A stretch of DNA of 64,000 nucleotides, from assembly GCF_000226095.1 (NCBI RefSeq), contig NC_016478.1, positions 3,462,001-3,526,000 of the forward strand. The letters run 5' to 3'. This DNA is from Thermothelomyces thermophilus ATCC 42464 (Eukaryota > Ascomycota > Sordariomycetes > Sordariales > Chaetomiaceae). The number at the start of each line of letters is the position of its first letter. Position 1 is the first letter of the stretch. The translations under genes were made by a program, and so were the position numbers. Below, piece by piece: positions 1,870-60,285 of this stretch. The notes below the pieces were generated by a model. That model ran no database searches. It saw only the letters and a program-made list of their open reading frames with translations, and had not been told where the DNA came from.

Positions 1870-2937
1870 TAGTATCTATCTAATATATTAATAGCTATCG
1901 GTTTACTTAGTAGTAGTAGTAATAGTCGCTACTCTAGTAGTAATAAGAATAAAGATTACTATATAAATTTTTCTCTTACCTATACTAATTTTAGCTATTA
2001 TATATATATATAGGGCATGGACTAATTCCTTATTTTATAGCATAAGAATGCTAACCTCTCCCTTGGTAGGTACGCTATTAAGGGCGACTCCTTTAATAAG
2101 GAATTAGAACTATAGCCTAAGAAGTAGTAATATTACCTATTATATATTAACTAACTTCTAAAAGGCAATAAGGTCAAATACGTCTAGGGTTAGGGCGCCT
2201 CCTATACGACGTGCTACAAGAACTATAGGAGCTATATTTAGGATCTATAGCTCTAGGCTAACAACCCCTACCTACATGTAGGCATCAAGAAAATTGTAGG
2301 TTATTACGATGCTAGCACCGCCCTTGCCTCCCCTGCCTATTATAAGACCGCTAACTAGGGCGCCTGTCACGCCGTCCTGACGCCTAAGTTCTCCGCGCTG
2401 GTGCGTTTGTTCTCTGTGCTCTTCGAGGCTGCCTAGTCTAACTATTCGCCTAGATAGGCTACCTTCGCCCCTGCCCTGGCTGTAAGTTCTCGTCGTTCTA
2501 GTAACGACTTTGCCCTAGTTGCTACTACCGCCGCCCCTAATACCCCTACCTATTGTAGTAATATTGTCTAGCCTACTACTAGCCCTAACCTTACCCTATA
2601 AGCTACTAGGCAGCTTATATACTATATTATAGTATAGAATAATAGTATATTATACTAGATATAGTATATAAATAAGAATATATTAACTTTGGTTAATACT
2701 AATGTTACCCTTGTTATCTATATCTTAGGCACCCTATTGCTTGCCTCTTATGCCTATATAAGTGCCTCTATATGCCCTATACCTATGCCGATCGACTTTA
2801 GCCATTCCTATGCCTACTACTCTTCCTTGCCTGCTAAGCGTATAGTATACCTAGTCCGTAACTACAATAACCCTACCCTTACCACTGTAACTATTGTTTT
2901 AGAGGAGGAGGATAAGGAGGAGGATGTTACAAAGTAA
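1870..2937 (+). pseudogene. Antisense accessory ORF remains inside the Gypsy element
   Basis: On the strand opposite to gag-pol, one plus frame can be followed from about 1,870 to the stop at 2935-2937. The last 82 codons (2689-2937) are fully open and end in an acidic tail, LEEEDKEEDVTK. Upstream, clean runs (for example around 2,270-2,355 and 2,380-2,560) are broken by TAG/TAA at positions that suit Gln or Trp. A segment near 2,200-2,235 reads TTCYKNYRSYI, which would be Cys-rich if Tyr codons arose from Cys by G-to-A. It lies between pol and the 3' LTR and converges on the chromodomain end. The function is unknown. Confidence 0.5.
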
Positions 2938-3149
2938 GCGCGTTATACTCTAGTTAGTGTATTTGTTTTTGTTTTTATAATTAGATTATCTCTATAACGC
3001 GTCTATAATACGTTCGCGACGCGTCTGTAACGTGTCTGCCGCTCGTTTGCCTTAGGTTTGCCTGCCTACGTGTAAATTCTAAATTATTTATTTTTATACC
3101 CTTCCCTACCTCTTGTTTATAACTAGTCTATTATTGTAATATATGTCTC

Positions 3150-6100
3150 CCTATTCCTATTTAAACGTATTAAGTGCCTTAGTATTTTCTAGATTTTCTA
3201 ATAGTTCTTAAGTTAGGGTATTATATCCCTTCTATTTTACTAATATATTATATCGGTTTCCTCTCCCCCTTACGTTTCTAGCTATAAGGATCGCTTCTAC
3301 TTTATATTTTTCCTATAGTAGTCCTTCCTAGGAGAGTTCTAATACTAGGTCTAGTTAGAAATCTGATATATATTATAAAGGTAATAGGTTAGATATAGTA
3401 CGCTTGACAAGATCAATATAGAAGGTAGGGTAGAGGCCCTAGGGAACATTTAGAGTCACTATTAGTAATGTCGGTACCGTGATTACCTTATACTTAGCGT
3501 TAACCTAATCGAGTTTACAGCTAGGGCGATTAGTTTTAATATTATATAAGGATAGCTATACTTTATCCCCTACCTTAAATCTCTTAGCTAGGCGTCGAGA
3601 ACGATTAGCGTTTTTTTGCTAGCGCTACTATATATACACGATGGCGGCCTAGATCCATTCTATACCTTCTCTTAGGTAGTATAAGAAATTAGTAGCTCTT
3701 CCTTGTAAGGTCGAGGCAGGAGCGTCTAATAGGTCGATGAACTATATTAGGCTTATATTATAACTATAGAGGAGGTAGCTTACGCTTGTCCTAGTTACTA
3801 TCGAGTCACGGTTATTAATTGTAAGCTAGTATATAGGTAGATGTTTAGGCTAGTCATACTATATAAAGGAAACTATAGTCTATAGGATAGTCTATACCTC
3901 CTAATTTACACGTTCTGTGCCTCTATCTATCTATAGATAATAGGCTATTAATAGTAGCTGCTCGATCCCAACAGTCTTATAGAAAGTGGTCTAAAACTGG
4001 CTAAGCTAGTCCGAACCGTGATTAGTGATAATTTGTATCGGAAATCTGTAAAACCGCCATTATACATCCTAGAACCGGAGCGCGCACGCCTCGGCTCCTA
4101 TCGAGGATATAGCTTCGAGTTAGACGTACTTTGACAGCTGGTCGGTGATTACTATAAGGTACCGGGGAGAATTCTTGTCTTGTGCAGGGAGATCGACCAT
4201 AAAATCGATAGAAATCTATTTCTAGAAGCGGTTGGTGATAGGTAGGGGCTAGAGGAGTCCTTGTTATAGTTAACGCGAAACCTTAGCCTTCTAATATATA
4301 TAATAGTTCCTTGTAAATCTCTTTACGTCTAGAGATATAAAGTCCTAGTAATAGTCCTATTAGAGTATTTTAAATAACCTATTCCTCCCTAGATAGCCTA
4401 ATATAAGGGAGTTATAGATACATTAAAGGATAGTAGTAGTAAGTAGTTCCTATATAGGGAGCTAAAGTCTACCCTAGAACTAGAAAGCACCCTACGTATT
4501 AAGGGAGTAGTCCATAATCTAGGTCTATACTATATTTGCTTCCTTTAGAAATTTTCAGGCCCTATCCTAGATAGCCTAGAGCTAGTATATATAATGTTTA
4601 TCCTTGACAACTCCCTTATCTTATAAGGCTACTAGCTATTTGTCTATAAAAATGGTGCTCCCCTTTGGTAGGTAGGATGCTTTAGATGACATCGAGGAAT
4701 CTGTTATATTTATCTAGATAGTAGGGAGAAGTTATACTATACGTTATACGTCTTCGGGAAAGTCTTGTTTACGACAGGACAGGGCGTTAGGGCGGGATAC
4801 TTACGACCTAGGTCGGTAATAGAGCTTAAAGTGGAAGAGGGAGAGTATCTTAGCCTAGCGAGCTTGTTACTTATTGATTAAACGAGGCTAGGAAAAGTAT
4901 TTAAGGTTTTTATAGTTAGTTAAGATCTAAAAGGGAGCTATAATACTATAGAGCTTGGCTAACTAGGCCTTTAGGTACAAGATAATTATAAGTAACTCCT
5001 TATTATAGATTATATAGTTCTATTTAGCCAGGGTTAGTTTTATAGAGTGGTAGGCTATAAGGTATAGAACCCTATCTTCTTCCTACTAGGATAGGCACCT
5101 TCCTAGCGCTATCCTAGAGTAATCTGCCTTAAGTACCGTCTCCCATTTAGGGTCCTATTATACGAGGATAGGTTCTAATATAAAGGCTATCTTAAAGGCG
5201 TCGAAGGCCTTCTGTTCCTTAATCTCTTACTGGAATGGGGTATTCTTATAGGTTAACTATATTAAGGGTTCTATCAGCCTGGAAAAGTTAGGGATAAAGT
5301 CTTAATAGAAATTAGCAAATCCTAGGAAGCTTTATACTCCCTAAACCTTCTATAGTACCTCCTACTTACAGATAGTAGCTAGCTTTTCAGGGTCTAGACA
5401 GACCTAGGCCCCTACCTTTATAATATAGCTAAGGTATTTGACTTCTTTTATAGTAAACGCGTACTTCTTAAGGTCTAGTATAAGTCTTACTTTTTATAAC
5501 TCTTAGAATATATCCTTTACTTACCTTATATAATCTTTCCTACTACCCGAAGTATAAACTAAGATATTATTAAGATATACCGTTATAAAGTCTCTAAGCA
5601 TTAGACCAAGAGCGTTATTAATATATTATTAGAAGATTACAGGTATACCTATAAGTCTAAAGGGATAGATAAGCCACTTAAAGAGGCCAAACCAGGTCTA
5701 GAATGCTATCAAATGTTCGTAGCCCTCTATAATCCGGATATAGTAGAAGGCTGCCTAGATATCTAACTTTATAAACCACTTAGCTCCGGCTAGGGAGCGA
5801 AGCGTTTCCTTAATAAGCAGGAGGGGGTATCGGTCTTACCTTATAATCTTGTTTAGCGCTTGATAGTTAATATAGAACCTTTAACCTCTATCTGCTTTCT
5901 TTACTAAGAGGATAGGGGCAGCGGCCGAAGAGAAGCTAGCTTAGATCTATCCCTTATCTAGTAAGTTAACGACTTGCTTTTGGACTTCTAATAAATGATC
6001 CTATAGCATGTTGTAGAGAGGTCCCTAAGGGAGTTTAAGGATCTTTCTGTCTAGGCCCTCCTTTAATTTGATGTAATGATTGGCCGCGCTATAATATGGG

Positions 6101-7943: not shown

Positions 7944-7999
7944 GACTACATTATTAATAACTCCCTTAGGGAGTTACTACCAGTAGAAGGTAGTCAAAA

Positions 8000-8323
8000 T
8001 GTAATGTACTAGCCTTATAGCAACTATAGATAAGCGTATAATATTCTATTTAACTACCTTAGGGAGGAAAAAGAGAAAGAATATAAGAGTTGTACAGAGG
8101 GGCGCCTTTTAAGTATATACGTTGTAACCTAGGTAGGGCCCGGTTAGGCTCCGGGTTGGGCCCTAACTGGGCCTTGGCCGCGTGTCTACCGGACGAGTTA
8201 CGAACGAGCAACAAACGCTCTACGGACCTGTGGGGCGTGGGTGAGTAGGGTAGGGTAGGTCTGTTCTGTGCCTGGGTAAAGCCTGGGCATTGTCTAGCCC
8301 GGGTGTAGCCTAGGCCTATAATA
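8000..8323 (-). repeat. Gypsy 5' LTR
   Basis: 324 bp. Its plus-strand ends are TGTAATGTA and CCTATAATA, and it is followed at once by the target duplication AGAAG (8324-8328). On the element's own strand it precedes gag, whose likely ATG is at 7943-7941. Confidence 0.92.
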
Positions 8324-8328
8324 AGAAG

Positions 8329-9374
8329 TCTAAAAGAGTCGAGTATAATAGAGCGATTCCTTTAAAGCTATAGATTAAATATAGCTATTATAGTCGTAGT
8401 ATTAATAGTATTATTAGTTTTAATTGTAATAATAATAAGATAATACCTCTTATGCTTGAATAAATAGATGACTTGTCGGGTATGCTTGTTATAAGTACTA
8501 TAACTGCTAGTAGGTCGACTCTTGCTTCTATAATACCTCGAAAGTATAAGCACGCTAAAGCTTCTAAACTAGCTTCTAAACTATAAGTGTTTCTATTATT
8601 TCCATTTGATTGATTTTATACCGGTTTTGTGGTTTTCTAGCGATTCTAGTGATTTAAGCGGGTTCGTGTAGTTTAGTTTCTTCTGGTTGATTTAATAGCG
8701 ACTCTATTATAGTTTCTAGCGCTCTACTAGTCACGTCTAGATCATTTAGGCTAACTAAATATAGCGATATCGAAGCTAGTAAGCTTTATAAGGTGCCCTA
8801 TAGAATATATATATAGTTAGCTTTAGTAGGATGTTCTTTCGGCAAATGTCGCGATCATTCTAGTACTAGCTCCTACTACTACTATTATACCTATAGTTCC
8901 TATAAGTATAAGAAGATATACGCTAATTGCCTATATATCTAATAGCTTTTATAATACCTATACCAACTATATTAGTAGTCCTACTTCTTACGTTAGGTCG
9001 GCAAAGAATTTGACAAAGGCCCTATTAGATAGAGCTAAGGCTTCTATAAGTCTCTAGATCCTAAACCTCTACCCCTAACGTATAGGCAAATCGCTAATAG
9101 TTATATATGGGATCTTAAGAAGTTATATATAGTCCTTTAGAGTGACTTAAAACGCGCTAGTGTAGACGATACAGAGGAGTACAAGCTTAATAAGGCTAAA
9201 CTCGTACGTTTTACAAAGATCGCCTACTCTATATACGACATCTTCTACTAGTTAGCTAAGATTAAGGAGGCTCGTAATACTCGCGTTAGCACATCTGATA
9301 ACACGTCAGGCGCTATATTGTCGCCTAGCCAAGATAAAGGCAAAGGCAAGGCTATTAATCTCGGCGACGGCTAA
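8329..9374 (+). pseudogene. Antisense accessory ORF remains inside Copia copy 1
   Basis: On the strand opposite to Copia gag-pol, one frame runs from the Gypsy insertion point to the stop at 9372-9374. Its in-frame stops are mostly TAA/TAG where Gln or Trp would fit. The clean part (about 9,055-9,371) reads with normal composition, includes the motif KLVRFTKIAY, and ends in a lysine/glycine-rich tail, KGKGKAINLGDG. Near 8,480-8,520 there is a small Cys/Tyr cluster (ACYKYYNC), possibly once cysteine-rich. The frame can be followed leftward across the Gypsy insertion into 1,020-1,101. I do not recognise the family. It converges on the end of pol, leaving only about 65 bp between them. Confidence 0.5.
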
Positions 9375-9439
9375 TAGTAGTAGATAAGGAGTATTAGGCG
9401 GTATTTTAGTTAACGAATTTGACTTATTTTCTACCCCCT

Positions 9440-12400
9440 AGTTATATAAGCCTGTGACTAACATCTTAAAGATTAAGGAGAGCCCTCTAGCGCTTAAAGG
9501 CTTACCAGCTAAGTTATTTAGTAAGCCTATCTACTAGCATCTAACTAGTTAATAGATATATAGCTTTAAACGTTCCTTTCGCCGCTTCCTAGTATAACCA
9601 TATATTATAGATATCTATATACTATAGGCAAGTATTAATACATTCGTTCTTGGCTATTACTAGTCAAATAGTTTACTAATTGTTATAATAGATGTTCTAG
9701 GGTTCCCCGAGCTTAAGATCGATATCTGTAAATAGCCTTTTAAGTACTATAGCCTCTCTTGCTATAAGGGAGAGCGTTAGAAGTTCTACTTTAGTACTTG
9801 ACGTTATAATAGTATCCTAGTACGACGCCTTTTACGTAATAGGACCTCCGAATGGGAAGAAAATATATCTCTATAACGAATACCGTGTATCTAGATCATC
9901 TACGTATAACGCGTCCCTAGCGATTATAAGCGTTAACCTATCTAGCGCTCGCTTACCTTTATATTAGATTGACAGGCAAGGGCTCCTAAATAGATATCTT
10001 ACTACTTACCGTGCCTCTGACAAGTGGTCTGGTCCTAGGTTAGTTAGGTATTAAGAGAGTACTAAATAGGCATATATAACATCTAGACATAGTATAACTA
10101 TATAGTATAGGATCGATCCGACAAGCTTCTAATACTCTTTAATCTATATATTAGTAACGCTCCCTTTAAACTTCTTAAGTTCTTTATAGCTTAAGGGAGT
10201 TAGCTTATATATACTAGGCACGTTTAGTCTATATCTTCTTACTACCTTTCTAATATATTAGTTATAGACTAACCATATCTTATACGTAGGTCAGTCTTGA
10301 ATCACCCTAATACTAAGGAACTAACTGACATTACCCTGCTCGTAGACGTCGTATCAAGCTTTAATTCTTTCTATCACCCGCTCGGCCGCTATAGCGTTAC
10401 TTTTATAAAAGAAGACCAAGAAGTTATTGATATAGAAGATCAGGATAACTTGTTTGTCATAGCTTAGGAAGAGGCACTTCTCTTCGCCTAATAGTTCTAT
10501 ACCTAGATCTGACAACATTTTATAGAACTCTTTATACTATAAGAGTAACAAGTCTCTTAAGCCGTATAGAGCTCTTTATAACTCTATACATTTCCCTAGC
10601 TACTTGAATCCTTCTAGCAATTCGTAGACGATAGGATCGTCTTCCGGTCGTTCGGCATTAAGGAACACTTATACTACATTAAACTGCTTGACTTCCAAGT
10701 CGAAATACGTAGTAATCGCTATTATTATATAAAACGACTACGCTACTAGAGTAGCTATATATGTACTTTCCACTAAGCTAATATCTCATAGATCTCCTTA
10801 TATATAGATCCTTACCTTATACTTCTCTAAGAAACCGTTCTTATTAAACTTATATATAAAGACCTATTTTAATGGTATAGGTTACGCTTTTGCCTACTTA
10901 TGTAGTACGATCTTTTACGTTCCCCTGCTCTCTAAGTTACGTATCTCCTCACAAGCTATATCTCTAAACTATTGTCCTAACAAGTAATTATATAGGTCTC
11001 GCTAGTTAGTAGGAACACGGATAAGATCGTTAATATACTAACGTAGCTTATTTAAGGCTACTTTAAGATATATAGCATCCTTCTATCGTATAGTGGTGGT
11101 AAATACTATATATACCGTTCGAATGCTCTAATCTTCTAAGTAAGCTTCCTATTAATTAGGTAGGTAAGTCTTATAGAACTGTCGCTAGAGTTCCTTTATT
11201 ACGTAGATAAAGGAGTAGTAGTAATTGACCTTCTCCTTATTTTATAGCCTTTCGCTTGACTAGATAGGGTCCCTAGGCTTACAAGCCCTCCTCCTACCTC
11301 TGCCTCTCCTTGTAGGAGGTTACTAAGTAGCTTTTCCTTCGTTTCTACCTTCTATAGGATATATTAGCTAATCCGGACTTCGCTTAACGCTCTACTCCTC
11401 TAGCCTAGCTAGGTACGATATATCGGTAGTACCGTCCCTAGCTTCTAGCTCTTCTATCTACTCGTTATATACACTAGATTCTTTTATAGAAGGTATTCCT
11501 CTGTTAGATTCGATAGCTTCCCTACTTTCCTTAGCGTCTAGTTAACTAGCTAGCGACTAGGAAGGCCCTAATTTAAACCCTCTTACTTCCTAGTAGATAT
11601 CCCCTTTACTAGCCGGCATAGGGCAAGTTACCAAGGGCTTAGGCATATATTTAGGGGTCAAGAGTCCTCTAAAGCTCTCTATCCATTTGGTAAGTTTATC
11701 TATTACTTATATCTCTACTATAAGAGTCTCTAGAACTAATTATTTACTTATAGGCTACGTATTAGAGAGCTCCCTTACCCCTAAGTCTTGACCTTATTAG
11801 AGAGGTTAGCCTATCGCCAGACTCTCTTATAATAGAGGTAGCCAAGCTACTATAATAGAGTCTTCTACTAGTTGTTAGGTCTATTATAACGCTTCCTAGA
11901 GAAAGTTGGTATCCTAGGAATTTTTGCTAAGATTGAATTAATTGACTTCCTAGCTTATTACTACTAGCAACGACTCTATTGGCTACTCTTTACCTAGATA
12001 GTGGAAAGTCTTCTTATTAAAGCGAACGTTACAAGTTATAATGACCCTATCGAGCTTAGGTATCTAAATATAATGGATATTAGATACGTAATATCTTATA
12101 AGATACCCTATTAGCCTATATAGTAGTATCTTAAAGTCCTTTATATGCTACTTAGCTTCCTTATCCTTATAGAGGATATATACCTAGTATCTATATATAA
12201 AGATGCTACTCTAATCTAGGTATAAGTCGCTAGTTAACGTAATTATCAAGCTAGGTTTATACTAGCGAAAATACTATCTAAACTAGCTATAGAGCACTTT
12301 GTTAGGAGTTCCAAATAAGTAAGTACGGCTTAGGCTTATCGCGTATAAGTACGCTACCGCTTATACGCTTTCTAACTAGAGCTTTATGGATAGATTTATA

Positions 12401-14770: not shown

Positions 14771-14867
14771 TAAAGCAGGGTAAGAGAGTTCGTAACCAAA
14801 GAAAGAAGCTACTACTAATATTAAAGATACGTCGGCAGAGGAGTAGTCAAGGCGCCAGGCTTATAAC

Positions 14868-15078
14868 TACCGAACGTAGTAGGAGCTCCGGGAGCGTTGA
14901 AAGCAGTCTGTAGTAGGTGGCTATACGAAGGAGATAGTGCCTTGTTAAACTATCTACAAAGGAGACAAAACGACTGATATTTATAGACAAAGGAACTGGC
15001 CAATGCGTTGGCAACGACGCCTTATACGCTGTGGCACGTATGTGGCTAATACTCTTAGAAGCTCCACAGCTTCTGACA
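14868..15078 (-). repeat. Copia copy 1, 5' LTR with TATA box
   Basis: On the minus strand it begins TGTCAGAAGC and ends CGTTCGGTA (original CA changed to TA). A TATA box, TATAAATA, lies at 14985-14978. Directly downstream the minus strand reads GTTATAAGCC, the position of the primer-binding site; I cannot name the tRNA. It sits 5 bp from the start of the gene island and is much less RIP-altered than the 3' LTR. Confidence 0.9.
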
Positions 15079-15083
15079 CCATA

Positions 15084-19287: not shown

Positions 19288-19320
19288 ACGCCGTGGATTA
19301 AATCTGCCCTGGAATAGTCA

Positions 19321-24500: not shown

Positions 24501-24668
24501 GACCACGATTCGACAAGGCCGTCTGATAAAAGGAGTGCCAGATGAAACTGAACAACGGGAGTGCGTGGTCAGTTTCCGTTCCCCAAAAAAGAACAAAAAA
24601 AAGTTTCGGGGAGTTCGTCTTCATCTTTGTTTACTTCCCGGTTCCCGCCAACTTTGCCAACGGAAACG
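21591..24668. other. Long intergenic region, 3.1 kb
   Basis: It lies between two divergently oriented genes (HNH protein leftward, RBR ligase rightward) and so probably holds both promoters. No supported gene. There is an A/T-rich patch at about 21,990-22,200. At 22,830-23,180 are imperfect GT/GA-rich repeats around the motif GGTGAAGTTAGA (22,952 and 23,055). A C-rich tract lies at about 24,448-24,460. Short open frames such as 22503-22784 (minus) and 23809-24174 (plus) have no recognisable content. Confidence 0.5.
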
Positions 24669-24886
24669 ATGGCGTCCGCTGCCTGGCCGCCAACGACGAG
24701 CTTCTATGGCCCGATCAGCCCCGCGATTCTAGGATCTGATTGGGACGAGGTGGAAGGGGAGGTGATTGCAGCGCCGGCCATCGAAAGTGTGGACAACGGG
24801 AAAGGAATTGAGGTCCAGAACCGGCAACAACCACCAGGAGAATCGCAAACACAGCCACAGGCACAACCACAACCACAATCACAACT

Positions 24887-24923
<37 letters not shown>

Positions 24924-38985: not shown

Positions 38986-38989
<4 letters not shown>

Positions 38990-42012: not shown

Positions 42013-42044
<32 letters not shown>

Positions 42045-49300: not shown

Positions 49301-49891
49301 TAATAGACCTAATAACCAATGGAAGACTCTATTATAATGGCTTGGCTACCTCTATTACAAGAGAGTCTAGTAATAGACTAACCTCTCTAATAGGGTTAAG
49401 ACTCGGGGGTAAGGGAGCTCTCTAATATATAGCCTATAAGCAAGCAATTAGTTCTAGAGACTCCTATAGTAGAGATATAAGTAATAGACAAACTCACCGA
49501 ATAGATAGAGAGCTTCAGAGGACTCTTGACCCCTAAATATATACCTAAGCCCTTAGTAACTTGCCCTATGCCGGCTAGTAAAGGGGATATCTACTAAGAA
49601 GTAAGAAGGTTTAAATCAGGGCCTTCCTAGTCGCTAGCTAGCTAACTAGACGCTAAGGAAAGTAGGGGAGCCGTCGGATCTAACGGAAAAATGCTTTCTA
49701 TAGAAGAGTCAAGCACATATAGTGTATTAACGGAAGAGCTAGAAGCTAGGGACAGTACTACCGATATATTATACCTAGCTAGGCTAGAGGAGTAGAGTAT
49801 TAAGCGAAGTCCGGATTAGCTAATATATCTTCTAGAAGGTAGAAATAAAGGAAAAGCTATTTAGTAACCTCCTATAAGGAGAAGCAGAGGT
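46118..49891 (+). mobile_element. Copia retrotransposon, copy 2, 5' part, truncated by a LINE
   Basis: Same family as the element at 766-15078 but read rightward. The 5' LTR is 46118-46328, followed by the same primer-site sequence and by gag to integrase remains. The reading frame near 48,000 matches the one near 13,150 of copy 1. The homology stops at AGCAGAGGTA (49891), which corresponds to about position 11,308 of copy 1, so RT and RNase H are missing here. They may lie beyond the window if the LINE simply inserted. It is heavily RIP-mutated, with stops throughout. Confidence 0.88.
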
Positions 49892-52469
49892 ATTATTATT
49901 ATTATTATTATTAGTCCTACACCGCTATGCTAATAAGCATGCCGGAGCCTCTCTAGTTATATATAAAGGAAACTATACCTAATAGGCCGGATAAAAACCT
50001 CTGTCCCGCTTTTTAATGCCCAATCCCGAATACTAATATACTACAAAGAAAAGGAGAAGTGGCTAGAACAGCCCTATAGAGGCCTTGCCTCCCGGTCTAG
50101 CCTTCTTCTCAAGGCGGTATTCCGGAAGCCTCCCTAGGTCCATTAGCCACTGTAGAACCCTCCTTGCCAAACGATAGTTACGGGCCCCTATACCTTGTAA
50201 AACGAGGTCTAGGTCCCTTTGCGACTATATTTCCCAGGATTCCTATGTTCAGCTTCTTAGTAGGTTCGGGCACTATACGACTAGGTGCTCGACAGTCTCC
50301 CTCCCCTGGCCGTAGGCATAGTAGGGGGTACTGACCCCTGGGACTTAAACCCTAAAAAGGAAGTCACGGAGGCTAATAGCCCCTGTACAGGCTTGTACTA
50401 GTAGGGAGCTCTAGGCCTTCGTTAGGCCCTGGTGCCTTTGTAGGCCTTCCCCTATAAAAACTAGGTATAGGGGGTCCTTGTCTGATATACGCTATATCCT
50501 CCTGCCGGCTTGGTCGGCCCTCTAGCGGTTGCTCTAGCTTGCCACTATGGCTAGTTCTGTGGCCTGTAGCCTTTTTCGTAGGGTCTGTAGGGGGAGTCGA
50601 CCCTCTCTATAGCCCTCCTAAACCTACTACTAGACTGTCGATCTTGCTACCTCTAGGGCTATAGGCCTTGGCTCCTAGCCCCTTGTCCTAACCCTTCTCT
50701 TCCAGAACCTCTAGCCTAGCCTATTATAGGCCTATTAGATGAGAGCCCTAGCAGGGACCCAGGGGGCCCCTAGGCCTGCCCTAGTCTGTAGGAGTGGCTA
50801 GTCAAGTTTGGCTTCGAAGTCGGCTAGCCTCTTATTAAGGTAGAGGTCAAAGGGTAGTACCTAGGCTTCCGTTTCGAGGCACTAGATAGGGGTAGCCTTA
50901 TAGGTCCTGGTAACTACTTGAAGGGCCCTATATTAGGCCTTCGATAGTTCCCTAGCAGGGCCTTCCGGCTTGCCCCCTGGCTTGGTAGGCTTATAGAAGT
51001 TCGAGGCCTTATAAGCTAGGGCGCTGTAAATACACTTAGTATAGACCTTACAGGCCTATAGGAGGCTAGGGCCCTAGGTCTTTATAGTAAGTCTGGTCAG
51101 GGTAAACTCCTAGGTTTCTAGCTTCTTAGCCACCTTCGTATAGTAGGGGCCCTACTATAGCCTCTAGTCTAGCCAGACCCCTAGGAATCTGGCCGACTTC
51201 GACAGGGCTATAGTAGTAGTACCCCCTCTAGGCTGTAGGAGCTCTAGCGGTCGTAACCACTATTTCCAGCCCCTATTAAAGTGGATAAGTTCGCACTTTT
51301 CTAGGGCAAAAGCCATACCCTATATCTTAGCCTACTATAGGCAGGCCTTCCAAGCCCTCTGTAGCTAACCGTTATAGGCCTCCTCGGCCCTCCTAAAGGC
51401 TAGAAGGTTGGTATCGTCGGCGAAGCCTATCAAGCTAACCGTAGGGCAGGCCTGGCAAATGGCCTAGTAAAGAGAGGCTATATAGAGGATAAATAGTATA
51501 GGAGAGAGGGGCGACCCCTAGGGGACCCCGGCCCTTACTACTATATCCTCTGTTTCCTAGCCATCAAAGTAAAGGATAGCTACCCTATCCTATAGCCACT
51601 CCCTAACCTAGACCACTAATCACTTTGGGAAGCCCTGGCTCTGTAAGGTGGCTAGTAGCTAGGTATAGTTAATGGTATCGAAAGCCCTTAAGATGTCAAG
51701 CTAGAGGAAGGAGGCAGCCGCCTTATACCTCTAGGCCTCCTAGACCTGAGCCGTAACAAGCCGGATAGCTAGTTCTATAGACCTATATTCCTGGTTACCT
51801 ATCTATTCGGCCGGTAGAAGCCTATAAGCCTCTGCGACGGCCGTTACCTTCCGGGCGACTATAGCTTCTAGTACCTTGCCTACTATTAGTAAGAGTGCTA
51901 TAGGCCTATAGCTACCTAGGGTAAAGTAGGCCTATAGGGGTTTGCCGGGCTTGCGGAGGACCACTGTCTTAGCCCTTTTAAACCAGGCTAGGCAATAGCT
52001 AAGCTAGAGGCTCTCTAAGGCTAGTATAGCTAGTATCCGGTAAAGCGGCCGCCTATAGGCCTTTAGCAGGCCTATAGGGAGGAGGTCCTCCCCCGGGGCC
52101 TTCTATAGGGCTGCTCTAGCTAGTACTACCCTGACGTCACCTACCGTAACCCTCCGACTTATCTCGAACTTCGGCTCCTAGTAGCCATTTAGTTCTAGGT
52201 CGTCGATATCCGAAAGGTCTGCTTCTAGGTTTAGGAAGAACTTATCGGCTAGTGCCTTAGCCTTCTATTAGTAGGTTATAAGCCCTCCTTCGAAGGCTAG
52301 GAGCTTTAGGAGTCGACTAGTAGGTAGCTTTATAGCCTTGCCTACCGCTCTAGCCTCTATAACAGGTCCGGCCGGTTAGTTACTTCCTATAGCGTAGCCC
52401 TCTAGCTCTTAGTCTTTATGGTCGTAATGATCTTAGCCTAGTCCTATAGGGCCTGCCAAAGTACCTCCT
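49892..52469 (-). mobile_element. 5'-truncated LINE (non-LTR retrotransposon) with (TAA)n tail
   Basis: Read leftward. The 3' end is a perfect (ATT)7 on the plus strand (49892-49912), that is, a (TAA)n tail like those of I-type LINEs. The minus strand encodes a reverse transcriptase: GVPRGSPLSPILFILYIA-like at about 51,480-51,540 and an intact GFADDTNLLAF active-site box at about 51,400-51,440. Near 50,270-50,330 is an ETVEHLV segment typical of the end of fungal LINE ORF2 RNase H regions. The endonuclease domain expected upstream is absent, because the sequence is cut at 52470 by the LTR of chromovirus A. It is less A/T-shifted than the neighbouring LTR elements but still full of TAG stops. 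Confidence 0.85.
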
Positions 52470-52893
52470 TACGACGAACCTAGCTCAGACTTCTTCTAAA
52501 AGGGTTCAGACGGAGGTAAATTAAGCGGGACAAGCGTATAGGTCGTCTAAGGGATTCGGTAAAGCCAAAGGGTTTATAACAACACTAGAGTTATCTCCTA
52601 CAATGGTCAGTGATACTTGGTATGAGTACTAGTGATTATAGGTTGGGTTGCTATCACTAGTAAACTCCTAGAGTCCACTATAACGAGTGACTATCTATAT
52701 ATATATATAACCCTGGTGATCACTCCTGATTATAGTGATCGTGAGTGAGCGTATGGTAGTGATTACCCTGATTATTGGTAAATATAGTGATTACAATGCT
52801 TCCTATGTTGTAATTGGTCCTTCTATTCCTTTGGTTAATTGGTCTGTCTGTGCTATTAGCCTAGGCGGTATCTGTATATATATTTCCGTGATA
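52470..52893 (-). repeat. Chromovirus A 3' LTR
   Basis: 424 bp, inverted relative to the LTRs at 54065-54488 and 60459-60884. The element strand begins near TATCAC and ends GGTTCGTCGTA, RIP-altered TG...CA ends. The open frame 52735-52947 on the plus strand is LTR sequence. Confidence 0.85.
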
Positions 52894-53064
52894 CGATGCC
52901 CTCTCTCTGAGGCTTTTGACCTAAAAGCCCTCTTTAGGCCATTTTAAATAGCGCTAACATCCCTTATGCTCCTTATATATATTTTTCTCCTTAGCCTCTT
53001 ATTATCCTTTATACTGTTAATTATGCCATCTAATGTATATAGATCCTAAGTGTCTATTCGTTAT

Positions 53065-53639
53065 AAGCATCTAGCTTAGTTTATTTCTAATCATGGGTTT
53101 GTAGTGATAGCGTGTTCCTATTGTGTAGAGTATAACCAAGTGTGTAAAATGATTGAAAAATCTCGTCGCTACAAGGCTTACGTACGTTGTAGTCGTGCTT
53201 ACAATGGTTCTAGCGTTCCGATTTCTTCTTGTAGGTTCTCGTTACCTTACGAAAGTACGTCGCTAATTGTAATGTAATAGATTATATTATACGTAAGTAA
53301 CGTCGTTTGAAGGCTAAAGAGAAAGAGGCCGAAGCCTTGCTTCGAGAATATTAATATAAAGCTTCTAAGGCATTAGCCTATCTGACTTAGGTTTGTAAAT
53401 AATAAGAGTTCTTAGTAGAGAAGGGGGCAGATATAGTTATATAGGGTTTATCAAATCTAGACGAATTAGAGGCAGTAGAATAGCAGGAATTGGGGGCCGT
53501 TCTAGGTATATAACTTAATGGTAGCATTAACGTTATTAACTAGAGCGCTATTTTCGGTTCTGTCCTAGGTTTACCTTTAGCTAATCTAGGTTCTGCTAAT
53601 AGAACTATTTTAGTTTCTTAGGGTAGTTTAAGTTCTTAA
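53065..53639 (+). pseudogene. Antisense Cys-rich/coiled-coil ORF remains in chromovirus A
   Basis: It lies opposite to pol, between the chromodomain and the 3' LTR. A clean stretch (53,090-53,275) includes the motifs ACSYCVEYNQVCKM and YVRCSRAYNGSSVP, a C-x2-C-x6-C cluster followed by basic residues. After a one-base frame change comes a Lys/Glu/Ala-rich helical part (KAKEKEAEALLRE, then EKGADIVI and LSNLDELEAVE) with stops only at TAA/TAG, ending at 53637-53639. I recall similar small Cys-rich plus coiled-coil proteins among fungal hypothetical proteins but cannot check. It converges on pol and abuts the chromodomain. Confidence 0.6.
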
Positions 53640-54064
53640 CTAGTTCCTATAAGTTATCTTCTAATCTAAAGTCAAGCTATTTAACTAGATACTATAGTTC
53701 CCTATTAATGATACGTAAATCTAGAATTTCTTCGACGTCCTATTCTTCCTCTTTGTCCTCTACTTCGATGTTTATAGCGATTTTGGCGTTCTTTGGCGCT
53801 AGTTTAAGAAGTAAAATATGAAAAATGTCTATCTATAGTCATATAGATAACGGTAACGATAGTCGATAGTTAGATGTCAAGATTTGTTCTTTGATAACGA
53901 AGGGTCTGACCTTCTTAAAGTCTAGCTTTATACTTAGTCGTTTAGTTCGTAAGTTTCGTATAATTAGGTAGACTTTGTCTCCCCTCTCTAGGTAAGGTCC
54001 CTTAAGCCTATGTTTATCATAATAGTTCTTTATTCTAGTTCTAACAAACTCAAGTTCCTTTTTA
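53640..54064 (-). pseudogene. Chromovirus A integrase C-terminus and chromodomain
   Basis: On the minus strand, RIKNYYDKHRLKGPYLERGD and KVYLIIRNL form the end of the integrase. These are followed by a chromodomain remnant (DVEEILDLR, YLVKWLDF with Trp lost to TAG, and an acidic turn). The fragment ends abruptly at 54064, where element B begins. Confidence 0.8.
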
Positions 54065-54488
54065 TTACAGAAATATACATATAGCTGCCGCCTAGGCCAC
54101 CAACACAAACAGGCCAATCAAGCTGAAAAATGATAGACCAATCAGGACAGGATCACACTTGGCAAGAAACGATCCCAGCAAAGGATCACTAGCTCATGAC
54201 GTGATCTAGGTAAGTCAGTACAGAGGATTACCACGACCGCTAGTGATCCTAGGATTATATATATATATAGATAGTCACTCGTTATAATGGACTCTAGGAG
54301 TTCACTAGTGGTAATAATTATAATCACAGTACTTATACCAAGCATTGCTAATTACTATAAGAAATAACTCTAAGTGTTATTATAAACCCTTTAGCTTTAC
54401 CAAATCCCTTAAATGACCTGCCTACCTATCCCGCTCAATCTACCTTGTCTAAACCCTTTTAGAAGAAGTCTAAGCTAGGTTCGTCACA
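54065..54488 (+). repeat. Chromovirus B 5' LTR
   Basis: 424 bp, TATTACAG...TTCGTCACA, with the initial TG changed to TA. It is more A/T-shifted than its partner at 60459-60884. Confidence 0.85.
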
Positions 54489-54554
54489 CGTTATTACTAC
54501 TCCCTTTGTTCTATTATGGTTTAGAATAGAGGTGACCTCGACCTTGACATTAAT

Positions 54555-57500
54555 ATGGCTACTAACGTCACGGCCGAATAGCTACTTGCCTAGCTCGGTC
54601 AACTCTAGCAGCGGATCTAGGAGTTAGACTAGAGAGATAAGGTTACTTAAGCCCGAATTAAGGAACTCGAGAACGGCGAAAAGTACTTGTAGAAACTGGT
54701 TAACGAGGCCTATACCAAAATCGAAGCGCTCGAGACTACTAAAGCAAGCTACATTAAGATCGAACTACCTAGCAAATATAGAGGAACTAAGGAGGATCTT
54801 ATAGGATTCCTAATAAACCTCTAATCCTACTTCCGGCTTAATAATAACAAGTTTCCGGACGACAAAGCCAAAGTTCTCTATATAGCTACGAGATTAGAGG
54901 GCAAGGCACTTAGATAGTTCGAGCCTATGTAGAACGACTATCTTACTAAGGAAGACAAAGACGACTAAGACGTGTTTATATAGGTAGTCTTCTAATCTTA
55001 TGACCGTTTCGAAGAAGAGCTTTAGAAGGTTTTTAGCGACAAAGATAAGAAGATTTATATATAAGAAAGACTCGCTAATCTCTAACAGACCAAGTTAGTA
55101 GCCTCCTACGCTATATAGTTTAGACAGGACATATTTAAGTCTTAGCTTAATAATAAGGCGTTAATGTAACTATTCTATAATGGCTTAAAGGAAAAGGTTA
55201 AAGACGAGCTATACAAATACGATTAGCCTAAGACCCTAGACGAATATATTATATAGGCTATTAGAATCAATAATCGACTCTATACATGAGAATAGCAAAA
55301 ACGAGGACAAATAAATAGAACCGCAGTTAAGGCTAATAATAAGAAAAAGCAAGTATATGTTAGTACCTCGTATAGGACGTACCTAAGAGCCATAGATATA
55401 GATATAACGTAAAAGCAGGACTAGAAGAAGACAACCAAAGACAAGTCTAATACTACCTACTATAACTATAGAAAGAAAGGGCACTATAAGCGAGAATGCC
55501 AGAGCCCGAAGAAAGAATAGAAACTAACCCCTAAGAAGGAAATTACGGCCATCGACGAAACCATTAAGGACGTCATCAAAGTAGCGGCTACAAGCTACAA
55601 AGACAGGGGTAGTAATATAGATAGTCTTGGATATGACGATAATGGTAAAGACGAACAAGTACCGTACTCCGAACTGGTCACTATAGACCTAGAGACAGGT
55701 CTCGCCAAATAGGACATGGCAAGAGGATATATACTGCTAGTTTCGATTCTCCCGGCCTTAAGACAGTAGGGTTTTACGGTCACGTAGAGGTAGGATAGAT
55801 CGTAGACAACCGACACCTAAGGAATCGAAAGACCTAGACCTAATGCTCTATTCCTCTAGGAACGAATCGAATGGTATCATAATGAAGTTTTCTGGCTTAA
55901 TACGGAACTACGTGAACGGGATAGACACTTGATCCGACCTACCTAGTAGAGCGATAGAATACGGGATGAAATAAGGGAACTCTAATATATCGTAAAAACC
56001 ATTAAAGGAGAATAGCCTGCGATATATAATAGGCCTAATAGCTATATCGAGTATCTTAACGGCTAGTAACTTAGCAACGATATGTAGAACCTAGAATACT
56101 AGTTTATACACGCGAACCGCGGAAAAGATAAGCGTATGTGGGAAAACTACTAGAAGAAATACTCCTACCTTAGCATTAGAGTACCTACGGCCTATATATA
56201 GTAGGAAGGATTTGGAAAAGAGTTCTAATACCTTCTAGGCGACGCTACACGACTATACCCACGACACGAGGTATATATATAAGTGCCCTAGTTCTAGTAT
56301 ATAGCATATAAATGCCGATACCACTTTCGCGACAAATTCGAAAACAATTACTAGCCGACCCGACAAGGAAATGAGGATAGAAGCCTCTGCCCTATAGAAT
56401 GGGTCTATAATATAGGAAATAGAGCGGCCGAATTGCTCTGGAAGATCGAAGCCTACGATCTAGAAGGCATTACGATAGTTCCAAGACGAGCCTAGCCTAG
56501 GCACTACAGAACCAGACGAGATATATAGGACTCGTGTTAGAGTAACGATTACCTCTATCACGTAGACAAAAAGAAATTGCGAATTCGGGAGCTTTAGACA
56601 AAGCTATAGCACGCTTGACAGAAAGTAGAATAGACCTAATAGTAGGAAGCCGTAAGCACTTAATGGCTTACGGAAATGAGCACGATTGACGAAGCTACTA
56701 TTAGCTAAACAACCGAAAAGGTTAGCACTGACCTAGGAAATGGGTTAGGGCCCTTCGAGGGGCCCGGAAACTATTAACGCCTATATAGTAGCAGGTAGTA
56801 GCGTAATATAGGAGGAACTAGTATAAGAGACCACTATATCGAGACCTCCTAGTAGAAATATAGGAAATCGCTATAATCTTTGGACGACGGCGGCAAGACA
56901 AGCGATTATGGATAATAGTATAATAGAAATAGCACGAAATGCTCGTACTAGTAGACAGTAAAGCAGAGATAAACCTGATTTTGCTAACGCTTATAAATTA
57001 GCTATAGATACCCTAGAGAATAAAGCGGAAGTATAGTATAGTCAAAAGGCCATTTCCGACACAATAGGTATATAGGGAGACCAAACCGATCGATATCACT
57101 ATGGTAGGAAAGACTATAGCAGTCGTATTTAGCATTATAGATATAGGCAATGACAAAGACATAATATTAGGGTTACTATAGTATAAAGACTATAACCTAG
57201 ACATTAGCTAGAAGAATGGTAGCTACCTATAACCCTAAATAGAGTTATATTTGACTAATAAGATAGGGAGTATACAAGGATCGTGAGCGGATGATGCTTA
57301 AGGGAAGGCATGTCTTACAGATCTACCGCAAGAGATAGATAGTGGTAGGCAGACCACTATAGACTCTAGAAGAAGCGGCATAACGACACTAACATTACGA
57401 TAGGAGGAACGAGCTAAACCGCCGATAGCTGTTCTCTCTGTTAACAAATACAGAGCACTATAACTAGAGTAGTAGGTTGAGACAGGAGAAATCGCTAGCA

Positions 57501-60100
57501 TCGCTATAGATAGAACCAAGTTTGTATACTATCAGAAAGCCGAGAGACGAGACAAGACTAGGGAAGTACCAAAGGAATACAAAGGATACCTAGCATTCGA
57601 ACCAAAGTATTTAGAAGGACTACTAGAGCACGGCCTATAGGATTACGAGATTAAGCTTAAGGAAGGAGTATAACTAAAGTTCTTTAAGATTTACTATACG
57701 AGCTAGATATAGAATGAAGAACTTAAGCAATACTTAGAGGAGAACCTTTGAAGAGGATATATCTGCCCGTCGACATTGCTAGCAGGTTACCTAATCTTGT
57801 TTGTGCCTAAGAAAGACAGAAAGCTATAGTTATACGTTGACTATTAGTAACTTAACGAATAGACTGTAAAAAACCGATACCTATTACCGGTAATCTTACG
57901 GCTCTAAGATTAGTTAGCAGGAGCCTAATATTTTACGCGTCTTGACTTGCCATCAGCCTATAACTATATATAGATCAAAGAAGGCGACGAGTAGAAAACG
58001 GCCTTTAAGACACCCTATGGCCACTATAAGTACCTTATCATGCCATTCGGACTTACGAACGCGTTAGTAACGTTCTAAGCCCTGATTGATCAAGCTATCC
58101 GACCCTTTCTCGACAAATTTACGGTATATTACCTTGACGATATATTTATCTTCTCCAAAGCGATAGACAAATACCAGAAGTATATAAAAGTAATATTAAA
58201 CATATTATATATATATAAGCTATTAGTTAACAAGGAAAAGAGCGAATTCTATATTAGGAAAACGGTATTTTTAGGATACGAGATATCTCTAGGACAAATC
58301 TAGATAGAACCTTTAAAGATTAAAGCTATTAAGAATTGGCTACGACCGACGTCAGTTATAGAAGTACGAAGCTTCATCGGATTTATAAACTTCTACCAGA
58401 TGTTCATTAGGAACTTTAGAGCGATCGTACGACCTTTATACGAACTTACCAGGAAGAACGCTAAATTCTAATAGGAAGAGTAACATGAGCAAGCACTTAC
58501 GTAGATCCGCGACGCCATTACTAAAGACCTAATACTGGTATTGCCAGACCCTAAGAAGCTATTTGAGGTAGAAACGGACGCTTTAGACTACGCTATTAGA
58601 GGACAATTAGGACAATAAGACAGACAAGGAAAGCTACATCCTATAGCCTTCTTTTTAAAGAAGCTCGATAGACTATATCTTAATTATCCGATCTATAACA
58701 AGGAACTACTTACAATTATTAAAGCTTTTAAGGAATGGCGACTATACCTTAATAGTATAATTAAACTAGTATAAGTATATATAGATTATAAGAATTTACG
58801 ATACTTTATGACGACAAAAGAACTTAACGGATAACAAATATGATAGGTAGAATTCCTCGCGGAATTTAACTTTGAGATCTGCTATAAGAAGGGTAAAGAG
58901 AATGTATAAGCAGATGCCTTAAGCCAATAAACAGATCATATAGAAGGACGAACGGAAATAACGCCACCGTTATTCAAGGAACGAATAGACGGAACGCTAT
59001 ATTACGAAACGCAGATACCCGTGGAAGATAACCTACTTGACTCGTTCCTAGAATATTACGTAATCTTTCGAGAAGAAAGGATCGACGAAGCACAGTATCA
59101 AGTAACACCTAGACTAGCGGTACCTAACGAAGTAGAAGAAAAAGATAGGAAACTCTAGTACTAAGGCAAAGTATATATCTATGATAAAGACTAATAGCTA
59201 CGAATGATTCGAAAACTCTATAAGTCGAAACTTAGAGGATATAAAGGAGTTATGAAGACTGTCGCACAAGTCAAGAAACACTACAACTTTCCATAGTTAA
59301 CGATATAAGTTAAAGAAGTTATATAGAGCTACGACATCTACAATCAAAGCAAAACAGTATAATATAAGCTATATAGGCTACTTTAGCCATTGCTAATAGC
59401 TAACAAACTATAGAGTTTAGTTATAATAGACTTTATTACAAAACTGCCAAAATCTAAGGACACGGCTATAGGGGTAATCTACGATAGTATTCTCACTATA
59501 GTAGATCGCCTGACTAAATAGGTATACTTCTTCCTATATAAGGAGTCCTAGACAGCTAAACAGTTGGCGGACGTGATCTATTAGCAAGTCGCATTAGTAC
59601 ATGCTTAGCCACAAGAATAGATTACCGATAGAGATACCAAGTTCGTATCGAAGTTCTGGCAAGCGTTAATGTAACGATTAGGCATTAATAGTAAGCTGTC
59701 GATAGCATTTTACCTACAGACTAACGGACAAACGAAGCGACTAAACTAAGTTATCAAGTAGTACCTCCGTTCTTACATCAACTACCAGCAAGACAATTAG
59801 GTCATACTGTTACTAACGGCGTAACTCGCTTATAACACGACGCTAATAGAAACGACCAAAGTCACACCGTTCTTCGCGAACTATAGATATAAAGCAGACC
59901 TTAGGCAAGGACTAGAGGTCATAGTGCTAAGAGTAGCAGTCAAAGTAGAACAAATACACACAATGTATGAGAAACTCAAAAAGGAACTCGAGTTTATCAA
60001 GATCAGAATAAAGAACTACTACGACAAATACAGGCTCGAGGGACCTTGCCTAGAGAGGGGAGACAAAGTCTACCTGATTACACGAAACTTACAAACTAAA
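54555..60100 (+). pseudogene. Chromovirus B gag-pol remains
   Basis: A possible gag ATG is at 54555. A CCHC knuckle remnant ending KKGHYKREC lies at about 55,450-55,505. The protease motif LVDSKAEINL is near 56,948. RT runs about 57,700-58,200 with TRLDLPSAYNYI and an intact YYLDDIFIF active site. RNase H has EVETDALDYAIRGQLG (about 58,565). Integrase runs from about 59,100, including QITDRDTKFVSKFWQ and LERGDKVYLITRNL at its end (60,100). Dozens of TAG/TAA codons replace Gln and Trp. The frame stops without a chromodomain. Confidence 0.85.
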
Positions 60101-60108
60101 TAACTAGG

Positions 60109-60285
60109 CTACGAACAAGCAGACGCTATGTCAGAACCATCGTAAGAACGACCCCGACGTACACACTTGTTACAGCGAGAAGAGCCTGACGCCATACGAC
60201 AAGCCAAGTTCCGCTTAAAACACCACAAACACGGCATGACGTCTACGCCAGAGGAGTCAATAAAAGAAGCAAGTGCGGCGCGCTG
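60109..60285 (-). pseudogene. Antisense Cys-rich ORF fragment in chromovirus B
   Basis: 58 open codons opposite to pol, just after the truncated integrase, with a stop at 60111-60109. It encodes a cysteine cluster, CLWCFKRNLACRM, then RCNKCVRRGRSYDG, matching in spacing the antisense ORF of element A. Here nearly all Cys are kept and there is no internal stop, and its base composition is less A/T-shifted than its neighbours. The downstream coiled-coil part is missing. Upstream of 60285 the frame is closed by a TAA that could have been Gln. Confidence 0.6.

What the first reader, a model, noticed from the sequence alone, without database searches (positions are those of the whole stretch)
1870..60285. 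Convergent antisense ORFs between pol and the 3' LTR in all three LTR-element families of the window
Copia (8329-9374), the nested Gypsy (1870-2937) and the second chromovirus family (53065-53639 in A, 60109-60285 in B) each carry a frame on the strand opposite to gag-pol, at the same place, reading toward the end of pol. In the chromovirus A/B pair a cysteine cluster is shared. In the other two, clean stretches of 50-80 codons remain, and the stops that occur are mostly RIP-type. The repeated layout suggests an accessory gene, perhaps expressed from an antisense promoter in the 3' LTR, for example to bind nucleic acid or to limit retrotransposition. Function is inference. One family may be a known type of fungal hypothetical protein.
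Basis: partly seen in the sequence, partly recalled or inferred. Interest (0 to 1): 0.75.

Follow-up and report, generated by a model that had tools for sequence, protein, structure and literature searches.

The report
Backwards genes in fungal jumping elements
Three unrelated families of virus-like jumping elements in a heat-loving fungus each carry an extra gene written backwards near one end, and one of these looks like a DNA-binding switch that changes together with the control DNA of its own element.

Summary
The layout is real: in Copia, the nested Gypsy and the chromovirus pair a gene antisense to gag-pol lies between pol and the 3' LTR. Stop counts cannot show this; RIP has put stops into every frame, pol included. 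Other tests do. The chromovirus gene has relatives elsewhere, a conserved phase-1 intron on the antisense strand, an unRIPped copy with a complete CX2CX6CX8CX2CX6C cluster and a third-position excess. The Gypsy gene is an almost indel-free block between indel-rich spacers. The Copia gene is conserved in a diverged copy. The three proteins are not detectably related.

New: chromoviruses A and B share one backbone (transversion divergence 0.2-0.8% in pol, LTR edge and R-U5) but differ at two modules, antisense gene (24.5%) and a U3 block (19.7%), matched in 37 of 37 typable copies. Each U3 block is a dense short-repeat array beside a TATA-like run. I infer a zinc-cluster regulator acting on its own LTR. 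Antisense accessory ORFs are a known kind. Expression, binding and function are untested.

The parts
8329..9374 (+). Copia antisense gene, read toward the end of pol; window copy broken by a private one-base shift near 8618; conserved end KGKGKAxN; ORF start not determined
   Evidence: one frame in 6 of 7 other copies, shared indels there of 3 or 12 nt; diverged copy L081 keeps the frame, transversions 7/12/18 by codon position of 78/78/77, p=0.036
10225..10893 (-). Copia reverse transcriptase domain of pol
   Evidence: RVT_2 E=4.1e-15 in window:9381-10980:- read with X at stops
768..974 (-). Copia 3' LTR; about 124 bp of Copia leader (975-1098) lie between it and the inserted Gypsy
   Evidence: LTR and leader are continuous with the ORF in 7 of 7 other copies
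2017..2937 (+). Gypsy antisense gene, ~305 codons (start by eye)
   Evidence: 1 indel event in 2100-2899 against 103 in 1600-1999, 29 copies; transversion-polymorphic columns 9/15/22 by antisense codon position; C-terminal stop in 30 of 30 copies
1099..1425 (-). nested Gypsy 3' LTR
53056..53230 (+). chromovirus A antisense gene, exon 1 (zinc-cluster exon; start not determined; several Cys codons read Tyr, the RIP product)
53231..53277 (+). chromovirus A antisense-strand intron, 47 nt, phase 1: T|GTAAGT ... CTAAT ... AG
   Evidence: donor GT in 9 of 30 and AT in 21 of 30 (RIP-type), acceptor AG in 27 of 30
53278..53639 (+). chromovirus A antisense gene, exon 2 (charged helix, coiled-coil-like; its end overlaps the 3' end of pol tail to tail)
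   Evidence: relatives P0001-P0010; profile match probability 100, 58% identity
52715..52870 (-). chromovirus A variable U3 block with GTGATCAC array next to a TATA-like run
   Evidence: GATCAC/GTGATC 87 against 2.0 expected in 25 copies
52871..52965 (-). conserved LTR edge between antisense gene and U3 block
   Evidence: A-B transversion divergence 0.002
53645..54063 (-). chromovirus A integrase C-terminus and chromodomain (by eye; pol is interrupted upstream by inserted element B)
60885..64000 (-). continuation of chromovirus A pol on the far side of inserted element B
   Evidence: 3116 bp, 3 transversions, no gaps against B
60109..60327 (-). chromovirus B antisense exon 1; exon 2 is lost in this copy by an internal deletion with junction at about 60106
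60483..60660 (+). chromovirus B variable U3 block with AGGATCAC array
   Evidence: AGGATC/GATCCT 30 against 1.4 expected in 9 copies; 0 in A
54067..54492 (+). chromovirus B 5' LTR (3' LTR 60463-60888)

Best explanation
Each family carries a real protein-coding accessory gene that reads from the 3'-LTR side toward pol. In the chromovirus it is a two-exon gene, 69 codons plus 126 with a phase-1 intron in the one unRIPped copy that was read. It encodes a zinc-cluster head (CX2CX6CX8CX2CX6C), a charged coiled-coil-like helix and an acidic, hydrophobic tail: the plan of a small fungal zinc-cluster regulator. I propose that it binds the repeat array in the U3 of its own LTR, beside the element's TATA-like run, and so controls sense transcription and copy number, more likely as a repressor. 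Shown: gene, intron signals, conservation, and the co-variation of gene and U3 array on an otherwise near-identical backbone. Inferred: expression, the LTR promoter, DNA binding, repression. For Gypsy and Copia the gene is supported and its function is unknown; by position and orientation I guess a comparable control role. Confidence: chromovirus gene real about 0.95, Gypsy 0.85, Copia 0.85; regulator of its own LTR about 0.5; repressor rather than activator about 0.35. The figure in the confidence field is for the regulator statement as a whole.
For: Relatives: 10 proteins at E<=1e-3 for chromovirus exon 2, one named from Corynascus similis; 58% profile identity. Intron: three alleles, 47 (A), 48 or 49 (B, 5 and 4 of 9 copies) and 68 nt (L079), same donor position, phase and acceptor, each giving one continuous frame; in B the intron length varies by one base while exon 1 has no indel and exon 2 only one 153-nt gap in one copy. 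Six of ten relatives begin with what reads as the intron 3' end followed by VDRI (my reading). Complete zinc cluster in L080; its only Pfam hit is PF00172, E=0.073, below cut-off. Constraint: transversions between A and L079 by antisense codon position 9/6/17 of 58 each (Fisher p=0.012); Gypsy indel desert; Copia against L081 7/12/18 (p=0.036). Modules. Genome: of 150 listed matches to P0001, 18 contain two TGA and no TAA or TAG; in the one read, both TGA lie in the intron.
Against: Stop density does not single out these frames. A purine/pyrimidine coding score was weak (correct frame best in 35 of 77, 19 of 44, 13 of 26 host windows and 28 of 72, 19 of 41, 16 of 25 pol windows) and, at the right codon boundaries, preferred the mirrored sense-strand frame for Gypsy (27 of 27), A exon 1 (29 of 30) and the Copia C part (8 of 8); it preferred the antisense frame for A exon 2 (3 of 3), the Copia N part (4 of 4) and the last 114 Copia codons (7 of 8). 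A-B transversions show no third-position excess. The Gypsy query found only a protein of this genome itself, the Copia query nothing. Zinc-cluster membership is below Pfam's cut-off and PDB sequence searches gave no support. The U3 motifs are not the CGG triplets usual for Zn2Cys6 proteins (recalled), and the A and B arrays share the core GATCAC. Heptad signal is clear in L079 (25 of 5000 shuffles) but marginal in three relatives (258, 316, 302 of 5000). No transcript data.
Confidence: 0.5

Rival explanations
1. Real antisense genes, but the U3 block is the antisense gene's own promoter (or a set of host-factor sites), and gene and block travel together as one transcription unit or by adjacency. 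The protein does something else, such as nuclear import of the pre-integration complex or RNA binding.
For: Gene and U3 block are neighbours in the element; template switching in reverse transcription can exchange such ends. Plant antisense proteins such as Grande GENE23 are nuclear with no known target (PMC7264820). Podospora crapaud shows U3-concentrated subfamily divergence that its authors explain by promoter evolution, competition or chance (PMC10787394 section 8).
Against: The two variable blocks are separated by a conserved edge (0.002 between families), so a single swap should have carried diverged sequence there too, unless that edge is under strong constraint. The repeats sit beside the sense TATA-like run.
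Confidence: 0.3
2. The antisense transcript itself, not a protein, is the product (double-stranded RNA and small-RNA control, or interference with the sense transcript).
For: Antisense RNA control is discussed for several elements (PMC7264820).
Against: Protein-level conservation, third-position excess, in-frame indels and an intron that keeps the reading frame.
Confidence: 0.08
3. A sense-strand third gene (env-like) lies between pol and the LTR in Gypsy or Copia, and the antisense frame is its shadow.
For: The weak coding score prefers the mirrored sense frame in Gypsy and in the Copia C part.
Against: Transversions peak at the third antisense position, which is the first position of that sense frame; diverged Copia copy L081 conserves the antisense protein.
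Confidence: 0.05
4. Chance open stretches in AT-rich RIP-mutated DNA.
For: Stop density alone is compatible.
Against: Decisive for the chromovirus, strong for Gypsy, moderate for Copia.
Confidence: 0.04

Closest known systems
Antisense additional ORFs between pol and 3' LTR (aORF-3R) of plant LTR retrotransposons: Grande gene23, RIRE2, Retand ORF4, PvRetro13 (review PMC7264820; parts 1 and 2 of 3 read)
   Same: Place, orientation, presence in most copies of a family, unknown function, nuclear role suspected
   Different: Host is a fungus; the review names no zinc-cluster protein; here an antisense-strand intron, one case in a Copia element, and co-variation with the U3
brtn of Boty-like elements in Botrytis cinerea (Zhao et al. 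2011, Virology 417:248; title seen in reference lists; paper not held)
   Same: Fungal chromodomain-bearing element with an additional antisense gene
   Different: Sequence relation to the gene here was not testable; no report of an intron or U3 pairing was seen in the passages read
HTLV-1 HBZ (passages and reference titles in PMC3410806)
   Same: Works alike if the model holds: antisense, starts on the 3' LTR side, spliced, encodes a DNA-binding-type regulator of sense transcription
   Different: bZIP protein of an animal retrovirus; analogy only, no homology claimed
Fungal Zn(2)-Cys(6) binuclear cluster proteins, PF00172
   Same: Exact cysteine spacing, followed by a coiled-coil-like helix and an acidic tail; the only Pfam hit of intact exon 1 at E<=10
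   Different: 13.6 bits against a cut-off of 21; about 196 residues only; U3 motifs are not CGG triplets
crapaud of Podospora anserina (PMC10787394, section 8 read and passages)
   Same: Chromodomain LTR element in which subfamilies differ in U3 while R and U5 are conserved
   Different: Only two ORFs are described in the passages seen; the word antisense does not occur in its main text
Heteroimmune phages (lambda, 434, 21; recalled)
   Same: Conserved backbone with a regulator gene and its target sites replaced together
   Different: Analogy; binding and immunity are untested here

Membership tests
[quoted passage not shown]
   All three families; in the chromovirus copy L079 it overlaps pol by about 125 nt
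Antisense additional ORF (aORF-3R) of LTR retrotransposons | Present in most copies of the family | tested here: inconclusive
   Present in the fetched copies (29 A, 9 B, 29 Gypsy, 7 Copia beside the window), but they were fetched with the antisense DNA itself and are the best-scoring ones
Antisense additional ORF (aORF-3R) of LTR retrotransposons | Protein-level conservation | tested here: met
Antisense additional ORF (aORF-3R) of LTR retrotransposons | Antisense transcription from its own or an LTR promoter | not testable with these tools
   No RNA data; intron is indirect evidence
Fungal Zn(2)-Cys(6) cluster (PF00172), chromovirus gene only | Spacing CX2CX6CX5-12CX2CX6-8C (pattern recalled) | tested here: met
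   CSWCASQGLVCKMIARTKRCEACVRRGRSC in L080
Fungal Zn(2)-Cys(6) cluster (PF00172), chromovirus gene only | Pfam gathering score | tested here: not met
   13.6 bits, cut-off 21
Fungal Zn(2)-Cys(6) cluster (PF00172), chromovirus gene only | Two zinc ions bound; DNA binding | not testable with these tools
brtn of Boty | Sequence homology to BRTN | not tested
   Sequence and paper not held
HBZ-like antisense regulator (analogy) | Spliced antisense gene on the 3' LTR side | tested here: inconclusive
   Intron inferred from sequence in three alleles; no transcript
Regulator-operator (immunity) module (analogy) | Gene and putative target sites replaced together on a shared backbone | tested here: met
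   0.245 and 0.197 against 0.002-0.008 elsewhere; 37 of 37 typable copies matched, 1 of 38 untypable
Regulator-operator (immunity) module (analogy) | Specific binding and repression of like elements | not testable with these tools
   Needs bench work

The most novel reading that the evidence does not exclude
Retrotransposon heteroimmunity: chromoviruses of one backbone exist as immunity types. Each type encodes, on the antisense strand and behind an intron, a zinc-cluster repressor specific for the repeat array in its own U3. Resident copies would silence incoming elements of the same type but not of others, which selects for swapping or divergence of the gene-operator pair while pol, LTR ends and R-U5 stay the same.
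Probability: 0.35. Interest if true: 0.92.

Novelty: new variant of a known kind. Interest (0 to 1): 0.74.

Why it matters
Antisense accessory genes of LTR retrotransposons have been noted for years without a known function (PMC7264820). Here the gene and a repeat array in the U3 change together on an otherwise near-identical element, which gives a concrete target to test and, if true, would link eukaryotic retroelements to the immunity logic of phages. It also shows how such genes can be recognised in RIP-destroyed genomes, by indel deserts, transversion position and introns instead of open frames, and it suggests that some short fungal hypothetical proteins are element genes.

Tried and rejected
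Stop counting by frame was dropped as evidence because known pol frames look the same (one search lost the copies in reverse orientation and was superseded). The purine/pyrimidine coding score was too weak and partly contrary. Third-position excess between A and B was absent (exon 2: 30/25/29; exon 1: 12/10/17); the two are saturated, so the pair A-L079 was used, with 58 codons in two gapless blocks that I chose. Within-family polymorphic columns pooled 16/19/37, p=0.005; the Copia N part (1/4/1) was left out of that pool because its frame is disturbed in the window copy; with it the sum is 17/23/38. Per family the same counts are not significant by chi-square (p 0.06 to 0.22). I first suspected a cysteine cluster in Gypsy; one search shows that most such columns hold arginine as well, and the idea was dropped. 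A single shared accessory gene for all three families was rejected. P0011 is not an independent relative: it is a gene model on a RIPped copy of this genome. PDB sequence searches and a plasmid search gave nothing useful; alignment A5 holds RIP-mutated rows, which weakens. CGG/CCG triplets in the U3 blocks were only listed as densities, without a control, and are not used.
Full report
WHAT THE WINDOW IS. A fungal genome segment of 64 kb: a block of ordinary genes (about 15-46 kb, GC 0.46-0.69) between AT-rich, RIP-mutated ends full of LTR elements. The genome has 38.7 Mb in 7 contigs. A protein that matches it at 96% over 84 residues is named from Thermothelomyces thermophilus ATCC 42464; size and chromosome number fit that species as I recall. 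Copia: LTRs 768-974 and 14870-15076, gag-pol on minus. A Gypsy element (LTRs 1099-1425 and 7997-8323, gag-pol on minus) is nested in the Copia leader. Chromovirus A (minus strand, 3' LTR near 52.5-52.9 kb) is split by chromovirus B (54067-60888, plus strand) and continues from 60885 beyond the window.

THE OBSERVATION. In each family a frame runs opposite to gag-pol between pol and the 3' LTR. Counting stops does not prove anything: in aligned copies RIP has put stops into all six frames, and pol in its own frame carries as many (0.041-0.102 per codon) as the antisense frames (0.018-0.076). I therefore looked for signals that RIP, which makes transitions, does not create: relatives elsewhere, introns, indels and transversions.

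CHROMOVIRUS: HOMOLOGY. An alignment of 11 of the 29 fetched A copies of exon 2 found 10 proteins at E<=1e-3. One is a hypothetical protein of Corynascus similis; the others come from sources coded jgi, lgn and ena (presumably metagenomes), one misnamed PilO. Their majority pattern is QRRLKEEEKxAEALLxEYQQKASEALARLSRVRKQKEFLVEKGAEMVARGLSNLDELE; they match the copies with 58% identity at profile probability 100.

CHROMOVIRUS: INTRON. Exon 1 (zinc cluster) and exon 2 are in different frames in all 30 aligned A copies. At one place in all of them stands T|GTAAGT or its RIP product (GT 9 of 30; AT 21 of 30), then CTAAT and AG (27 of 30): 47 nt. B has T|GTTYGT (GT 6 of 9, AT 3 of 9), CTAAY and AG (5 of 9) at the same place. 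Its length is 48 nt in 5 and 49 nt in 4 of 9 copies, while the 130 columns of exon 1 have no indel and exon 2 has one 153-nt gap in one copy. An unRIPped copy, L079, has GTAAGC...TTCTAG, 68 nt, also phase 1, with two TGA inside. Although these lengths differ modulo 3, removal gives one frame each time. Six of the ten relatives begin with what reads as the 3' end of this intron just before VDRI (my reading). An intron on this strand makes sense only if this strand is transcribed.

CHROMOVIRUS: PROTEIN. In L080/L079 the gene is intact: 69 codons with CSWCASQGLVCKMIARTKRCEACVRRGRSC, then 126 codons with a charged helix and an acidic, aromatic tail. The only Pfam hit of exon 1 at E<=10 is Zn_clus, E=0.073, 13.6 bits against a cut-off of 21. 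Heptad periodicity of the helix is exceeded by 25 of 5000 shuffles; in three relatives it is marginal (258, 316, 302 of 5000). The gene overlaps the 3' end of pol by about 125 nt, tail to tail. Transversions between the A family and L079 fall 9/6/17 on codon positions 1/2/3 of 58 codons before the overlap (Fisher p=0.012) and 0/0/1 of 35 codons in the part that overlaps pol. Of 150 listed genome matches to P0001 (a capped list), 18 contain two TGA and no TAA or TAG, so intact copies exist; one was read.

GYPSY. Between 2100 and 2899 there is 1 indel event in 29 copies, against 103 in 1600-1999, 2 in 2000-2099 and 36 in 2900-2999; in the last stretch all affected positions but one (2916) lie beyond the antisense stop at 2937. 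Pol shows 0.1-0.6 events per kb and copy. The indel-poor block coincides with the antisense ORF. Transversion-polymorphic columns fall 9/15/22 on antisense positions (chi-square p=0.06; one-sided binomial p=0.029 for the third, 0.10 for columns with minor count of 2 or more), the wrong way round for the mirrored sense frame. The query found only a gene model of this genome, so relatives elsewhere are not shown.

COPIA. Six of 7 other copies keep about 345 codons in one frame, with 16-20 stops each, nearly all TAA or TAG; shared indels are 3 or 12 nt, and the window copy and L008 carry private shifts. A diverged copy (46% protein identity; 246 bases read as L081) keeps the frame, with two stops at places where the other copies have a stop or Gln, 6-nt indels and the KGKGKA end; transversions 7/12/18 (p=0.036). 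No relative was found in the protein database.

TWO CO-VARYING MODULES. A and B are one element outside two places. Pol of the two window copies: 3116 bp, 3 transversions, no gaps. Over the fetched copies, mean transversion divergence between families against within (A; B) is: integrase 0.002 (0.002; 0.002), integrase C-terminus 0.006 (0.001; 0.008), chromodomain 0.008 (0.002; 0.011), LTR edge 0.002 (0.001; 0.002), R-U5 0.004 (0.005; 0.004), but antisense gene 0.245 (0.003; 0.005) and U3 block 0.197 (0.004; 0.004) (25-29 of 29 A and 8-9 of 9 B copies per block, the rest not passing the length filter). Type of gene and type of U3 agree in 28 A and 9 B copies; one A copy has no typable U3. The copies were fetched by sequence of the antisense region, not by the U3, but they are the best-scoring ones (30 loci given for A from 40 scored of 791 candidates, 10 for B from 40 scored of 174, window copies included), so rare mismatched copies could be missed. 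The third allele L079 shares the pol-overlapping end (1 difference in 105 sites) but not the core (32 in 174), so it looks like a third type on the same backbone; its U3 was not read.

THE U3 ARRAYS. A: GATCAC/GTGATC 87 times in 25 copies against 2.0 expected from dinucleotide shuffles (RIP-tolerant form 129 against 4.3). B: GATCAC/GTGATC 25 against 0.7, so the core is shared, but in B it stands in AGGATCAC: AGGATC/GATCCT 30 times in 9 copies against 1.4, and 0 in A against 1.9. R-U5 shows no such excess (at most 7 against 5.1 in A, 3 against 1.3 in B); the B integrase has a smaller one (6 against 0.6; RIP-tolerant 18 against 3.6). The printed arrays (10 A, 9 B copies) end at GGATTATA followed by TA repeats, a TATA-like run. 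In the 3' LTR the array lies between the antisense gene and the sense promoter, which point away from each other, a usual place for an operator (recalled).

HOW IT MOST LIKELY WORKS. The antisense gene makes a small zinc-cluster, coiled-coil protein that binds the array of its own type and controls sense transcription. Repression with immunity between like elements explains best why gene and array change together while the rest stays fixed; activation, or an array that is merely the antisense promoter, is not excluded. For Gypsy and Copia I claim genes, not functions.

KNOWN AND NEW. Antisense ORFs at this place are known from plants and from Boty in Botrytis (PMC7264820, parts 1 and 2 of 3 read; brtn title in reference lists). 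U3-concentrated subfamily divergence is known from crapaud (PMC10787394, section 8 read). Passages only were seen of PMC5445492, PMC3248453, PMC8365987, PMC4227169, PMC5987419 and PMC3410806. I found no paper joining antisense gene, intron, zinc cluster and U3 in the listings of searches; most subscription journals are not in that library.

Noticed in passing
G000, 18 of 150 rows: A third chromovirus allele with near-identical scores and no TAA/TAG in the match at 18 places, in a genome that RIPs heavily: it looks recently active or RIP-escaped. One place was read (GC 52%).
   Followed up: partly
window 54067-60888 inside 52.5-64.0 kb: Chromovirus B is inserted in the integrase of chromovirus A, in opposite orientation; the window B copy has an internal deletion at about 60106 that the nine other fetched B copies lack (L070 has a smaller one).
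   Followed up: yes
window 46474-49892: A second Copia piece in the opposite orientation, 88-89% complementary to 11295-14728.
   Followed up: no
window 26167-26550: Tandem 12-base repeats coding for a long Arg-Glu run inside the ORF 25756-26721, which follows an ORF with a ring-finger-like stretch at 24552-25751 (domain guess by eye).
   Followed up: no
G000:C2:1962596-1963267: The database protein MYCTH_93007 appears to be a gene model with introns laid over a RIPped Gypsy antisense ORF.
   Followed up: partly
Copia copies, about 8659-8706 in window coordinates: Many Copia copies match in two pieces around this stretch, so the middle of the Copia antisense gene may also be a variable module.
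   Followed up: no
window 60540-60660: Besides the AGGATCAC repeats the B U3 of several copies holds an inverted repeat of the form GCTCAC-GTC-GTGAGC (seen in sequences printed).
   Followed up: no
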